Source of the DNA: Gammaproteobacteria bacterium
GTDB lineage: Bacteria > Pseudomonadota > Gammaproteobacteria > HK1
DNA: 7,047 nucleotides
NCBI GenBank assembly: GCA_022822245.1
Contig: JAJECB010000521.1
Span: 1-7,047, forward strand
Reading direction: 5' to 3'
In this document: one piece after another, positions 1-6,800 of the stretch
Position numbering within the stretch: position 1 is the stretch's first letter
Layout of the letters: each line of letters starts with the position of its first letter
The notes under the pieces: generated by a model
The model's database searches: none
The model's input: the letters and a program-made list of their open reading frames with translations, nothing else
Told to the model about the DNA's origin: nothing
Translations under genes and position numbers: made by a program

Positions 1-432
1 TCCGGTGATCGCGACGACCGGGGTCGAGTCCATGAGGGCATCGGCGAGGGCGGTGAGGAGGTTGGTGGCCCCCGGGCCGGAGGTCCCCATGCACACCCCG
101 GGCCGTCCCGTCGCCCGGGCGTAGCCCTCCGCGGCATGGCCCGCCCCCTGCTCGTGTCGGACGAGCACGTGGCGGACCTGGTCCCGCGCGCCGAAGAGCG
201 CGTCGTAGATCGGCATGTTCGCGCCCCCGGGATAGCCGAACACGAGGTCCACGCCTTCCGCGACGAGGGCCTCCACCAGCGATTCGGCGCCGTTTCCCGC
301 CGGATCGGAGGTCCGGAATGCGGCTCCGCCGGCCGGCCCCCGGGGGAGCCTGTGCGGCGAGTGCGGCGCAAGGTCCGGAAGCGGCCCGCCGGCGGCCGCT
401 TCGATCGCGCTCTCGTGTTCGATTTCGGCCAT
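1..432 (-). CDS. ilvB: Acetolactate synthase large subunit, N-terminal part (cut by window edge)
   Basis: Thiamine-diphosphate enzyme that condenses two pyruvates, or pyruvate with 2-oxobutyrate, as the first committed step of Val/Leu/Ile synthesis. 144 codons are visible and the frame runs off the left edge. The sequence shows the ThDP N-terminal domain: [20 protein letters not shown] then [12 protein letters not shown] (residues 48-79), [15 protein letters not shown] (92-106) with E94 matching the catalytic glutamate, and [16 protein letters not shown] (117-132). About 47 Pro/Gly/Ala-rich residues precede the conserved domain, a longer lead than in E. coli enzymes. Start: ATG at 430-432 has GAGG just upstream but only 2 nt away; an in-frame ATG at 442-444 would add four residues but has no Shine-Dalgarno, so the start is uncertain between them. 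Upstream lies a leader peptide and attenuator. Other ThDP decarboxylases of the family are possible, but the motifs and the branched-chain leader favour IlvB. Confidence 0.9.
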
Positions 433-451
433 TTCCTCACCCATGGAAATG

Positions 452-485
452 AAAAAGCCCGCCTCCGTTGCCGGGGGCGGGCTTT
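452..485 (-). terminator. Intrinsic terminator (attenuator) upstream of ilvB
   Basis: On the minus strand a perfect 10-bp stem, AAAGCCCGCC paired with GGCGGGCTTT, encloses a C/A mismatch and a further CCG/CGG stem closed by a GCAA (GNRA) tetraloop; the 3' arm runs into TTTTT. It sits between the leader peptide stop (510) and the ilvB start (432), so it would end transcription before the structural gene. This is the classic position of an amino-acid biosynthetic attenuator. Nothing on the plus strand needs a terminator here. Confidence 0.88.
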
Positions 486-532
486 CGTAGTTCGTGCTCT
501 CGGGCAGCGCTACGTCTCGGCCGACCCCCAGG
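471..532 (-). promoter_or_regulatory. Predicted antiterminator structure of the ilv leader
   Basis: In the minus-strand transcript CCUGGGGGUCGG (532 to 521) can pair with CCGCCCCCGG (480 to 471): ten base pairs with two bulged U residues. The 3' partner overlaps the 5' arm of the terminator (485 to 476), so the two folds exclude each other. Inside lies a small hairpin, CGUAG (514 to 510) with CUACG (490 to 486), whose 5' arm contains the leader's UAG stop. A ribosome stalled on the Val/Leu codons around 542-557 would leave the antiterminator arm free and allow ilvB transcription; a ribosome reaching the stop would cover it and let the terminator form. Pairings were found by eye; folding energies were not calculated. 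Confidence 0.65.
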
Positions 533-575
533 AGGTCCCGATGACGAGTACTACTACCGCGAGCAGTGCGTGCAT
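510..575 (-). CDS. ilv leader peptide (21 aa), branched-chain attenuation
   Basis: A 21-residue reading frame starting MHALL with the run LLAVVVLVI at residues 4-12 (codons CTG CTC GCG GTA GTA GTA CTC GTC ATC), ending GSAET and a TAG stop. Eight of nine consecutive residues are Leu, Val or Ile, the amino acids made by the downstream pathway, as in known ilv leader peptides such as those of ilvGMEDA and ilvBN in enterobacteria. An AGGA (583-586) stands 7 nt before the ATG. The peptide itself probably has no function beyond sensing charged tRNA supply through ribosome stalling. The short hydrophobic run could be mistaken for a signal sequence, but the terminator and antiterminator just downstream favour a leader. 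Confidence 0.82.
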
Positions 576-581
576 GGCACC

Positions 582-610
582 ATCCTGGACTCCGGCGCCG
601 CTCAAGTCAA
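582..610 (-). promoter_or_regulatory. Candidate promoter for the ilv leader transcript
   Basis: On the minus strand TTGACT (610-605) is followed after 17 bp by CAGGAT (587-582). The -35 is 5/6 to the sigma-70 consensus and the -10 is only 3/6. If real, transcription would begin about at 575, the A of the leader ATG, giving a leaderless leader peptide. The same CAGGAT contains the AGGA that would serve as Shine-Dalgarno if transcription starts further upstream, so both readings cannot be true of one transcript. Confidence 0.4.
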
Positions 611-3665: not shown

Positions 3666-6600
3666 ATGAACACGACCCCCGCCGACGCCGCCGGCTCGGC
3701 CCCGTCCCCGCGGACCGGGTTCATCGCCTGGTTCGCCGGCAACCGTGCCGCCGCCAATCTCCTCATGCTGTTTCTCATCGTCGGGGGCGTGCTCACCGGC
3801 CTTCATCTCGCGGTCCAGAACTTTCCCGAGCTCGATACCCGGACGGTGACCGTCACCGTTCGTTCCCCGGGATCGTCGGCGAAGGAGGTCGAGGAGGACG
3901 TCAATCGTCGTGTCGAGGAGGCGGTGGTCGGGCTGTCGGGGGTCGCGCGGGTGGTCAGCACCGCGACTCAGGGCCGCGGCCGGATCGAGGTCGAGGTCGC
4001 CGAGTTCGCCGAGCCCGCCGACGTGCTGAACGCGGTCGAGGGCGCGGTGGACGCGATCGAGCGGTTTCCGCCGCTCAACGCGGAACGGCCCGAGGTGGAG
4101 CTCTGGCAGGTGGCCCTCGAGGTCATGACCCTCGCGGTCTCCTCGTCCCTGGTCGCCGAGAACGAGCTGCGGCTCGCCGCGGAGGAGTTGCGCGACGGAT
4201 TGCTGGCCCTTCCGTCCGTTTCTCAAGTTTCGCTCGAGGGGACGCGCGACCGCGAGATCTCGATTGAGCTGAGCGAGGAGGAGCTGCTCCGCCACGACCT
4301 CTCCCTGCGGCAAGTGGTCAATGCGGTGCAGCGGGCCTCCCTCAACCTCACGTTCGGCGAGCTCCGCACGCAAGCGGGCAGCGTGGTCCTGCACACCGTG
4401 TCGAAACGCCGCACCGGCTCGGAGTTCGCGGACATCCCGCTCATCACCCGGCTCGACGGCACGATCGTGACCGTCGGGGACGTGGCGCGGATCCGGGACG
4501 GATTCGTCGACGAGGACATCGTCTCCGAGTTCAACGGCCGCCCCGCGGTGTTCGTGCGGGTCGCGGCCGCGAAAGGCCAGTCGGTGGTCGACATCGCGGA
4601 CGAGATCCGGCATTGGCTCGCGACCTGGGAGGCGCCGCAGGACGTCGACGTGAGCGTCTGGAACGACCGGGCGACACCCGTCTTCGAACGGTTCTCGAGA
4701 ATTCTCCGCAACGCCTTGATCGGCACGGTGCTGGTCTTCCTCACCCTCGTCCTCGTGTTCGATCTCCGGGTCGCGTTCTGGGTCACCCTCGGGATCCCCC
4801 TGTCCTTCGTCGGGTCCCTGCTCCTGTTCGGAGCCGCCGATCTCACCCTCAACATGGGGACGCTCTTCGCCTTCTTCCTCCTCATCGGGATCGTGGTGGA
4901 CGACGCGGTGGTGGTGGGAGAGAGCATCGCGGCGGAGCGCGAGAGGGGCAAGAACGCACTCGCGGCCGCGATCTCGGGGGCGAGAGCCGTGGTGGGCCCG
5001 CTCACCGTCGGCGTCGCCACCACCGTCATCGCCTTCCTGCCGCTGCTCTACGTGACGGCGGGCTACTACCAGGTGGTGGCCGTCTTCCCCTGGGTCGCCC
5101 TGTTCGTCCTCCTCGTCTCGCTCGTCGAAGCGTTCTTCATCCTCCCCGCCCACCTCTCGCACGAGCGGCCCTGGAGCGCGCCGCCCCTCAGCACCCTCCA
5201 GGACCTGGTGCGGGTTCGGCTCGACGACGTCCGCGACCGGATGGTCGTGCCCGCCGTGTCGTGGGCGGTTCGCCACGTGTGGCTCACCGTCATCCTCGCG
5301 GTCGCCGTCGTCCTCGTCTCGCTCTTCCTCATCCGGTCCGAGACGGTCTGGATCGTCGTCTTCGACCGGGATCTCAACGCCCCCGACAGCATCCAGGCCG
5401 ACCTCCGTCTCCCCGTCGGCACGCCCTTCGAGGTCACCCTCGCCGCCGCGGAGCGATTCGCGAGCGCCGCCCGCGCGATCAACGACGAGCTGGACGGGAC
5501 TTCCATCAATGGGGTGAGCGTTCTCGCCGGCAACCTCACGTCGCCGTCGCCGATCGACGGATCCGGGAACGCCGGCCATCTCGCCTCGGTGCGGGTCCAT
5601 CTCAACCCGCGGCCCGGCCGCAGCGCGACGCCGGTGGAGATCGAGCGCGCCTGGCGCCGCATCGCGGGCGTCGTTCCGGAAGCGGGAAGAATCGAGTTCC
5701 GCACCACGCGGGTGAAGTTCCCGCCGAGCGTCGCATACTCCGTCCAGCACGACGATCCGGAAATCCTCGGCCAGGCGGTCGCGGAGTTCCGAGCGCTCCT
5801 CGCGGCCATGCCCGGCATCCACGGCATCTCGGACGACCGGTCGCTCGGAAAGCGGCACTTCGAGATCGGGCTCACCCCGGCCGGGAAGGCGGCGGGCCTC
5901 ACCCCGGCCGCCATCGGCGCGCAGCTTCGGGCCAACTTCCACGGCGTCGAGGTCCAGCGGCTCCAGAGAGGCCGCGAGGAAGTCAAGGTGATGGTGCGGT
6001 ATCCGCCCGAACGCCGGCGAAGCCTCCGGGACCTCGCCGGCGAGCGCATTCGCCGGCCGGGCGGGGGCGAGGTCCCCCTGTCGACGGTGGCCCGGGTCAC
6101 CGAGAAGCGCGAGTTCGCCACCCGGACGCGGATCGACGGCCGGCAGGCGTCGCGTATCAGCGCGAACGCCGACATTGCGGTGGTGACGCCCATCCAGGCG
6201 CGGCGCGAGGTCGAGAGGAGCCTCATTCCCGGGCTCCTCGCGAAGTATCCGGGGATCCGGATCGAACCCGATGGCGGGGCTCGCAGGGAGAGCGCCATGC
6301 TGAACACGCTCGGGTTGCTGTTTCCTCTCGCGTTGGTCGCCATGTACGCGCTGATGGCGGGGGTTCTTCGCAGCTACTGGAAGCCCATCGTCTCGGTGGC
6401 CGGGGTTCCCATCGCGTTCGCGGGGGCGGTCCTCAGTCACTGGGTTCTCGGCTGGGACTTCACCGCCATGTCGCTCTTCGGGGTGATCGGCGTGGCGGGG
6501 GTGGTCGTGAACGACGCGCTGGTGCTGCTCGACCGCTACAACACGATCCGGCGGGAGAACGCGATGATTCCGGCCATCGCGGCGGCCGCGGCGGCGACCC

Positions 6601-6800
6601 GTCACCGGTTCCGGGCGGTGTTCCTGACCAGTCTCACCACCGTCCTCGGCCTGGCGCCCATGCTCTACGATCGAAGCGACGAGCTCATCACCTTCGTGCC
6701 CCTCGTCGTCAGCATGCTGGGCGGCCTCGCCCTCGCGACCCTGTTCACCCTGTTCCTGCTGCCGGCGCTCGTGATGATGGTCGAAGGCCGCCGGGACTGA
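3666..6800 (+). CDS. RND efflux permease (AcrB/HAE1-type)
   Basis: 1044-residue inner-membrane proton-driven exporter, full length for the AcrB family. TM1 is at about 29-49, followed by a large periplasmic loop (50-345), TM2-TM6 (about 348-493), TM7 (about 537-557), a second large loop (560-878) and TM8-TM12 (about 880-1037). The TM4 proton-relay aspartates are present as D412-D413 in GIVVDDAVVVGES. TM11 carries R981 and T988 in RFRAVFLTSL, matching AcrB R971 and T978. In TM10 the AcrB lysine K940 is replaced: the segment reads GVVVNDALVLLD, with N949-D950. AGG lies 5 nt before the ATG, overlapping the end of the adaptor gene, which suggests coupled translation. No TolC-like channel gene follows. 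A heavy-metal (HME) pump is less likely without its metal-binding motifs. Substrate cannot be predicted. Confidence 0.95.
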   Translation: MNTTPADAAGSAPSPRTGFIAWFAGNRAAANLLMLFLIVGGVLTGLHLAVQNFPELDTRTVTVTVRSPGSSAKEVEEDVNRRVEEAVVGLSGVARVVSTATQGRGRIEVEVAEFAEPADVLNAVEGAVDAIERFPPLNAERPEVELWQVALEVMTLAVSSSLVAENELRLAAEELRDGLLALPSVSQVSLEGTRDREISIELSEEELLRHDLSLRQVVNAVQRASLNLTFGELRTQAGSVVLHTVSKRRTGSEFADIPLITRLDGTIVTVGDVARIRDGFVDEDIVSEFNGRPAVFVRVAAAKGQSVVDIADEIRHWLATWEAPQDVDVSVWNDRATPVFERFSRILRNALIGTVLVFLTLVLVFDLRVAFWVTLGIPLSFVGSLLLFGAADLTLNMGTLFAFFLLIGIVVDDAVVVGESIAAERERGKNALAAAISGARAVVGPLTVGVATTVIAFLPLLYVTAGYYQVVAVFPWVALFVLLVSLVEAFFILPAHLSHERPWSAPPLSTLQDLVRVRLDDVRDRMVVPAVSWAVRHVWLTVILAVAVVLVSLFLIRSETVWIVVFDRDLNAPDSIQADLRLPVGTPFEVTLAAAERFASAARAINDELDGTSINGVSVLAGNLTSPSPIDGSGNAGHLASVRVHLNPRPGRSATPVEIERAWRRIAGVVPEAGRIEFRTTRVKFPPSVAYSVQHDDPEILGQAVAEFRALLAAMPGIHGISDDRSLGKRHFEIGLTPAGKAAGLTPAAIGAQLRANFHGVEVQRLQRGREEVKVMVRYPPERRRSLRDLAGERIRRPGGGEVPLSTVARVTEKREFATRTRIDGRQASRISANADIAVVTPIQARREVERSLIPGLLAKYPGIRIEPDGGARRESAMLNTLGLLFPLALVAMYALMAGVLRSYWKPIVSVAGVPIAFAGAVLSHWVLGWDFTAMSLFGVIGVAGVVVNDALVLLDRYNTIRRENAMIPAIAAAAAATRHRFRAVFLTSLTTVLGLAPMLYDRSDELITFVPLVVSMLGGLALATLFTLFLLPALVMMVEGRRD

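What the first reader, a model, noticed from the sequence alone, without database searches (positions are those of the whole stretch)
430..610. Complete ribosome-mediated attenuator in front of ilvB
The minus-strand leader has every expected part in the right order: a short frame with a Leu/Val/Ile run (510-575), an antiterminator arm beginning about 10 nt after the control codons (532-521), a hairpin over the leader stop (514-486), and a GNRA-capped terminator with a U-tract (485-452) whose 5' arm is shared with the antiterminator. The coding sequence itself (the Trp-Gly-Ser codons UGG GGG UCG) supplies the antiterminator strand. Attenuation of this type is established for enterobacterial ilv operons and predicted in other groups; if this organism is from a phylum without described cases, it would be new there.
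Basis: partly seen in the sequence, partly recalled or inferred. Interest (0 to 1): 0.75.

Follow-up and report, generated by a model that had tools for sequence, protein, structure and literature searches.

The report
Amino-acid-sensing RNA switch before ilvB
Just ahead of a gene for making valine, leucine and isoleucine, this Gemmatimonadota bacterium carries what looks like a classic RNA switch that turns the gene on when those amino acids run short; the mechanism is long known in other bacteria, and similar switches turn up in its relatives.

Summary
On the minus strand a 21-codon frame, [21 protein letters not shown] (575-510), is followed after 23 nt by a GCAA-capped intrinsic terminator (486-453) and ilvB (ATG 444). 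Folding with a ribosome placed on each codon gives a sharp switch. With the A site on codons 4-12, which hold all eight Leu/Val/Ile codons, the coding strand 531-510 captures the terminator's 5' arm; from codon 14 on it does not. One correction: the "hairpin over the leader stop" is the inner part of the antiterminator. New evidence: three of the four leader Val codons are GTA, in a row, a codon serving only 2 of 233 valines in the window's genes. The window belongs to Gemmatimonadota. There, all 20 ilvB loci (of 96 classified) that do not directly follow another branched-chain gene have a Leu/Val/Ile-rich short frame, 18 with a terminator-like hairpin. Of 20 ilvD-ilvB loci read further upstream, 12 have leader and terminator ahead of ilvD and 4 have neither. 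Rfam has no matching family, and five literature searches naming the phylum showed no described case; the likeliest earlier survey (2010) was not available. It is a new member of a known kind, classical leader-peptide attenuation. Function is inferred, not shown.

The parts
510..575 (-). leader peptide frame, 21 codons, [21 protein letters not shown], stop TAG
   Evidence: translation; 0 of 2000 shuffles hold 8 Leu/Val/Ile in 9 codons
540..566 (-). control codons 4-12: CTG CTC GCG GTA GTA GTA CTC GTC ATC (L L A V V V L V I)
   Evidence: codons printed; GTA is 2 of 233 Val codons in five window genes, 3 of 4 in the leader
510..531 (-). antiterminator 5' strand inside the coding sequence (GGGGG 529-525, CGG 523-521 region, CGUAG 514-510)
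   Evidence: pairs with 490-471 when the ribosome is on codons 4-12; duplex -19.1 kcal/mol, 30 of 500 shuffles as good
471..490 (-). antiterminator 3' strand, shared with the terminator 5' arm
453..486 (-). intrinsic terminator hairpin, GCAA loop, 14 pairs
   Evidence: -26.7 kcal/mol
447..456 (-). U-tract UUUUUCAUUU
   Evidence: sequence
583..586 (-). possible ribosome-binding site AGGA, 7 nt before the leader ATG
   Evidence: read by eye; untested
605..610 (-). possible -35 element TTGACT; at a 17-nt spacing the -10 would be CAGGAT (587-582), a poor match
   Evidence: read by eye; the pattern scan found no promoter
1..444 (-). ilvB, acetolactate synthase large subunit, 5' part (gene runs off the window)
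   Evidence: TPP_enzyme_N E 2.1e-37; TIGR00118 E 1.8e-43

Best explanation
A ribosome-mediated transcription attenuator that makes ilvB expression depend on charged valyl-, leucyl- and isoleucyl-tRNA. When these are plentiful the ribosome runs through the control codons towards the stop, covers the antiterminator strand, the terminator forms and transcription ends before ilvB. When one is short the ribosome stalls on codons 4-12, probably most readily on the rare GTA triplet; the strand 531-510 then pairs with the terminator's 5' arm and RNA polymerase reads into ilvB. Shown here by computation: the frame, its rare codons, the terminator, the codon-dependent pairing, and leaders of the same kind ahead of ilv genes in the phylum. 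Inferred: that the frame is translated, that stalling follows tRNA charging, and that readthrough changes.
For: Frame and codon run beyond chance. Terminator. Expected antiterminator pairs 9.9-13.9 for A-site codons 4-12, 0-2.9 from codon 14 on, over 18 settings. GTA 2 of 233 Val codons in window genes, 3 of 4 in the leader, p about 2.5e-6; in 11 high-GC leaders Leu/Val/Ile codons end in A/T in 72 of 156, other codons of the same leaders in 34 of 217. Leader frames in 20 of 20 ilvB loci that follow no other branched-chain gene, and leader plus terminator ahead of ilvD in 12 of 20 loci. The automatic leader-plus-terminator rule gave 9 hits in 653 kb of strand, all ahead of ilvB, and 7 in 1.52 Mb, four ahead of ilvB and one ahead of ilvD; the other two were not checked.
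Against: No experiment. The window's antiterminator duplex alone is reached by 30 of 500 shuffles, and duplexes in L101, L130 and L099 are no better than shuffles (139, 142, 148 of 500). In the coarser minimum-energy scan the terminator arm of the window can pair with other upstream sequence when the ribosome is on the last two codons (9 and 7 bases), and L101, L103, L120, L130 and L142 show no clean fall at the end of the control run. Synonymous/nonsynonymous counts give no sign of selection on the peptide. Three ilvD-ilvB loci of the window's probable order show no leader (L232, L238, L239). The promoter and binding site are weak.
Confidence: 0.9

Rival explanations
1. The frame is an independent small hydrophobic membrane peptide; the hairpin ends its transcript and ilvB has its own promoter.
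For: The peptide is hydrophobic; synonymous/nonsynonymous counts are uninformative.
Against: 19 leaders hold 261 Leu/Ile/Val but 11 Phe; rare codons are concentrated on Leu/Val/Ile; only 9 leader-plus-terminator pairs in 653 kb of strand and all 9 lie ahead of ilvB.
Confidence: 0.04
2. The leader works by translation (reinitiation, occlusion of the ilvB start) or by Rho rather than by the intrinsic terminator.
For: In S. coelicolor ilvB, changes of leader codons had no effect (PMC1262725, passages); L180 and L181 have a leader frame without a terminator that I found.
Against: A strong terminator with U-tract lies between frame and gene, in the window and as a hairpin in 18 of 20 relatives.
Confidence: 0.04
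3. A riboswitch, T-box or other named RNA element controls ilvB; the frame is incidental.
For: In some bacteria ilvB is under a ppGpp riboswitch (PMC10272879, passages).
Against: No Rfam family reaches its gathering score in the window or in 20 related loci.
Confidence: 0.015
4. Chance combination of parts in G+C-rich DNA.
For: The antiterminator duplex alone is reached by 30 of 500 shuffles.
Against: 0 of 2000 shuffles hold the frame; GTA run p about 2.5e-6; the same parts recur in relatives.
Confidence: 0.005

Closest known systems
Leader-peptide attenuators of enterobacterial ilvB and ilvGMEDA (recalled; E. coli ilvB attenuation is cited in PMC10272879)
   Same: Short frame rich in branched-chain codons, antiterminator sharing the terminator's 5' arm, terminator before the gene.
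   Different: Other phylum; unrelated leader sequence; in the window only nine control positions with a GTA triplet. I made no sequence comparison with the E. coli leaders.
Actinobacterial ilvB leaders and the Corynebacterium ilvB-II motif (PMC1262725 passages; PMC10272879 passages and section 14; PMC11857589 abstract and outline)
   Same: Frames with Ile/Val/Leu codon runs and terminators ahead of ilvB; a terminator, antiterminator and anti-antiterminator are proposed in C. glutamicum.
   Different: In PMC1262725 the frames overlap the terminator and the mode was called unclear; here frame and terminator are 23 nt apart and the antiterminator lies in the coding sequence.
ilvB-OMG and Leptospira ilvB motifs (PMC10272879, section 14)
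   Same: uORFs rich in branched-chain codons ahead of ilvB; [quoted passage not shown]
   Different: Their alignments are in supplements that I could not open, so overlap with Gemmatimonadota is not excluded; no Rfam family matched the window.

Membership tests
ribosome-mediated branched-chain leader-peptide attenuator | short frame with a run of Leu/Val/Ile codons directly ahead of a branched-chain gene | tested here: met
ribosome-mediated branched-chain leader-peptide attenuator | intrinsic terminator between leader and gene | tested here: met
   (486-453, -26.7 kcal/mol, U-tract)
ribosome-mediated branched-chain leader-peptide attenuator | antiterminator that excludes the terminator and is freed by stalling on the control codons | tested here: met
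   computed; duplex against shuffles modest (30 of 500)
ribosome-mediated branched-chain leader-peptide attenuator | structure that hides the antiterminator strand when no ribosome stalls | tested here: inconclusive
   a hairpin inside the coding region covers that strand in the lowest-energy fold of 600-430, but the nascent RNA without a ribosome still forms 10 antiterminator pairs
ribosome-mediated branched-chain leader-peptide attenuator | conservation of the design in relatives | tested here: met
   the window's own leader sequence was not found elsewhere
ribosome-mediated branched-chain leader-peptide attenuator | translation of the leader and response to Val/Leu/Ile supply | not testable with these tools
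   needs reporter, Ribo-seq or Term-seq
Rfam leader, riboswitch or T-box families | covariance-model match at the curated score | tested here: not met
   best in the leader is ctRNA_p42d, 25.8 bits against a cut-off of 50, on the terminator hairpin; 0 matches in 20 related loci

The most novel reading that the evidence does not exclude
Much of the phylum Gemmatimonadota controls its branched-chain operons by ribosome-mediated attenuation placed ahead of whichever gene comes first (ilvB or ilvD). Leader sequences are rewritten between lineages while the rare-codon run and often the 23-33 nt spacing to the terminator are kept, and the coding sequence behind the run doubles as the antiterminator. 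One subgroup (L101, L103, L142, L143, L146, L147) puts an extra hairpin between leader stop and terminator and may use a longer chain of helices.
Probability: 0.6. Interest if true: 0.5.

Novelty: new member of a known kind. Interest (0 to 1): 0.4.

Why it matters
It extends a textbook mechanism to a phylum for which the searches made here showed no described case, and gives a sequence-only clue to how these bacteria sense branched-chain starvation. The clustering of rare codons on the sensing positions is a handle for annotation: rare Leu/Val/Ile codon run plus terminator marks the start of an ilv operon. For a specialist it widens the known range rather than overturning anything.

Tried and rejected
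Rfam for a riboswitch, T-box or named leader: nothing at gathering score. DNA search for the leader in ten related genomes: short weak matches only (best E 0.006). Synonymous/nonsynonymous counts in five leaders of one group and two of another as a sign of translation: uninformative. An extra 0:1 helix in the L101/L142/L143 subgroup: weak support in L143, L146, L147 (27, 43, 29 of 500 shuffles as good), none in L101, L103, L142 (267, 400, 109 of 500). More relatives from the order of G314: its 41 ilvB places were already held. Its family gave seven further genomes with ilvB; the six with loci lie behind leuA, and the seventh (G449) was not fetched. The order of G263 (43 genomes) gave three ilvB places, already held.

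Errors of mine. The homocysteine methyltransferase gene was queried from 808 instead of 809, a wrong frame, (so P0002, rests on it too) and as protein 2; those results are void. The same slip entered the codon table (2 of 222 there); one search recounts it (2 of 233). Searches read minus-strand loci unturned; redone. One search failed on a script error; redone. My first attempt to hand in was sent back with fields out of place and is replaced by this one.

Limits of the counts. The context classes rest on short motifs within 900 nt, in any frame of the gene strand; L157 (leuA ahead) and L134 (own gap of several hundred nt with a TTGACA behind ilvD) were reassigned by eye. Only 409 and 517 nt are visible ahead of L146 and L180. 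L099 (four Leu) and L120 (Met-rich) were accepted by eye; the strict rule catches 7 of the 20 plus the window. L117 was dropped (contig begins inside ilvB). ilvB matches of G005, G007, G009, G257 and those weaker were not examined. Of 29 ilvD-class loci 20 were read further upstream. The 1.52 Mb scan and the 653 kb scan cover stretches around ilvB, not whole genomes.

Full report
What is there. The minus strand reads, in order: a 21-codon frame [21 protein letters not shown] at 575-510; 23 nt; a 14-pair terminator 486-453 with a GCAA loop and UUUUUCAUUU behind it; and ilvB from ATG 444, matched by acetolactate synthase models from residue 51 on. A divergent homocysteine S-methyltransferase starts at 809. 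The frame is not a chance feature: 0 of 2000 dinucleotide shuffles of 800-445 hold a short frame with 8 Leu/Val/Ile in 9 codons. Of 500 shuffles of 600-445, 5 hold a terminator of -20 kcal/mol or better.

How it should switch. A ribosome was placed on each codon, the RNA cut just before the terminator's 3' arm, and the expected number of pairs between 535-510 and 488-471 computed for three 5' ends, three footprints and two 3' ends. On codons 4-12 it is 9.9-13.9, on codon 13 1.8-10.9, and from codon 14 to the stop 0-2.9. All eight Leu/Val/Ile codons lie in the permissive part. The pairing joins GGGGG 529-525 to the C run of the arm and CGUAG 514-510 to CUACG 490-486, so the 'hairpin over the leader stop' is the inner part of the antiterminator. 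At equilibrium the full RNA favours the terminator at every ribosome position, so the model needs the choice to be made during transcription. The fall behind the control run is in part simple masking, which is the mechanism proposed. The independent part is that a complementary strand lies there, and for the window alone that is modest (30 of 500 shuffles as good). Without any ribosome the nascent RNA still forms 10 antiterminator pairs, so tight termination in the absence of translation is not predicted. In the coarser scan, which counts pairing with any upstream base, the window's arm can also pair elsewhere when the ribosome is on the last two codons (9 and 7 bases).

Rare codons. In five genes of the window GTA serves 2 of 233 valines; in the leader it serves 3 of 4, in a row (p about 2.5e-6; one search had 2 of 222 with one gene out of frame). 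In 11 high-GC leaders, the window's and ten relatives', Leu/Val/Ile codons end in A or T in 72 of 156 cases and other codons of the same leaders in 34 of 217. Eight relatives with A+T-richer genes were not in that count and show no such excess in general.

Which organism. No genome is held for the window. The RND transporter at 3666-6800 is 62-63% identical over nearly its whole length in 8 of 395 genomes of the phylum of G001. G001 holds L018, a record titled Gemmatimonadetes bacterium. In 12 example genomes from other groups the strongest matches were 29% and 33%. The window is therefore taken as Gemmatimonadota. Five of the eight genomes appear in the list for the order of G146, its probable order. 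ilvB alone did not decide: Actinobacteria and others match as well (74% against 73%).

Relatives. 96 distinct ilvB loci of the phylum were classified by what lies ahead (loci). After two reassignments by eye 33 follow leuA, 29 ilvD, 12 leuB, 2 leuD, and 20 follow no branched-chain gene directly. All 20 have a short frame with a Leu/Val/Ile run, two of them weak (L099, L120). Fifteen have a terminator hairpin behind it (the U-tract is poor in L101 and L103), three a strong hairpin with a poor U-tract (L143, L146, L147) and two none that I found (L180, L181). In the order of G146, 9 of 28 ilvB places carry such a leader. Closest in design are L134 (ending ILRLVILLGWRDGGSAED) and L149 (ending ILRLVLIQGAGSGAL). 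Leader stop and terminator are 23-33 nt apart in 12 of 16 cases and 48-59 nt in four. Shuffles with as good a duplex between the strand behind the run and the terminator arm, of 500: window 30, L134 7, L149 4, L167 1, L142 0, L127 6, L123 24, L124 28, L122 33, L120 44, L103 51, L129 59, L121 69, L101 139, L130 142, L099 148. In the ribosome scan, L167, L121-L124 and L129 lose arm pairing behind the control run, L134 and L149 only partly, and L101, L103, L120, L130 and L142 show no clean fall.

ilvD operons. For 20 of the 29 ilvD-class loci the region further upstream was fetched. Twelve have leader and terminator (L240 weak), one a leader frame only (L248), three lie behind leuB (L241, L245, L249), and four show neither (L232, L238, L239, L247). 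Three of the last four are from the window's probable order, so this is not a universal rule.

Specificity. The automatic rule (frame of at most 45 codons, at least 7 of 9 Leu/Val/Ile, terminator of -15 or better within 70 nt) gave 9 hits in 653 kb of strand with 71 terminators, all ahead of ilvB: the window, seven Gemmatimonadota loci and one Chloroflexus locus, L081. In 80 loci from many phyla (1.52 Mb, 252 terminators) it gave 7: four ahead of ilvB (L008, L016, L025, L031) and three 1.9-2.2 kb upstream of it. Of these three, L018 was checked and is ahead of ilvD; L006 and L046 were not checked. L008 and L081 are the same Chloroflexus place.

What is known. Attenuators of this type are established or predicted in Proteobacteria and Actinobacteria (PMC1262725, passages), supported by mutation in Corynebacterium (PMC11857589, abstract and outline) and argued to be common for ilvB (PMC10272879, passages and section 14). 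Five searches naming Gemmatimonad* with attenuation, leader peptide, attenuator, uORF or branched-chain terms showed no described case (0, 1 and 0 papers; some searches listed 10 of 191 and 15 of 170 papers). The one paper was seen as a listing only. The library holds open-licence PMC papers; the 2010 survey by Lopatovskaya and others is cited in papers seen but not held. PMC4833913 (passages) does not contain the phylum's name.

Verdict. A classical branched-chain attenuator, well supported by anatomy, codon use and relatives, without experimental evidence: a new member of a known kind, with a probable wide spread in the phylum as the more interesting part.

Noticed in passing
L008/L081, about 375-500 nt ahead of ilvB (record titled uncultured Chloroflexus sp.): A leader frame MAAHFVSLILLVLVLLLSLIGGWRKRA with a terminator 41 nt behind it: an ilvB attenuator candidate in Chloroflexota.
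   Followed up: no
L006 and L046, about 2.2 and 1.9 kb upstream of ilvB: Leader-plus-terminator pairs (MKNFSLINIILLIIVIIIPGYWE in a record titled Ignavibacteriae; MNIPLYNLSLIVVVLAVLIIKDQFLVRMAAVRVRK in one titled Anaerolineaceae), possibly ahead of the first gene of the ilv operon.
   Followed up: no
L025, just ahead of ilvB (record titled Singulisphaera): A leader frame with LNLVVITVTLVVLTI and a terminator: an attenuator candidate in a record titled as a planctomycete.
   Followed up: no
L180 and L181, 300-450 nt ahead of ilvB: Similar Leu/Ile-rich frames (…ALILLSILIILPVSLWEGSGLIIIGL; …SLVILGSLIILPIVGIGLLSLILAH) with no terminator found.
   Followed up: partly
L101, L103, L142, L143, L146, L147, between leader stop and terminator: An extra strong hairpin whose 3' arm can pair with the terminator's 5' arm; possibly a longer chain of alternative helices.
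   Followed up: partly
window 3666-6800 and genomes G251, G131, G398, G062, G283: The genomes with the closest RND transporter (62-63%) have no ilvB match at E 1e-30, so near relatives of the window may lack ilvB or carry a distant one.
   Followed up: no
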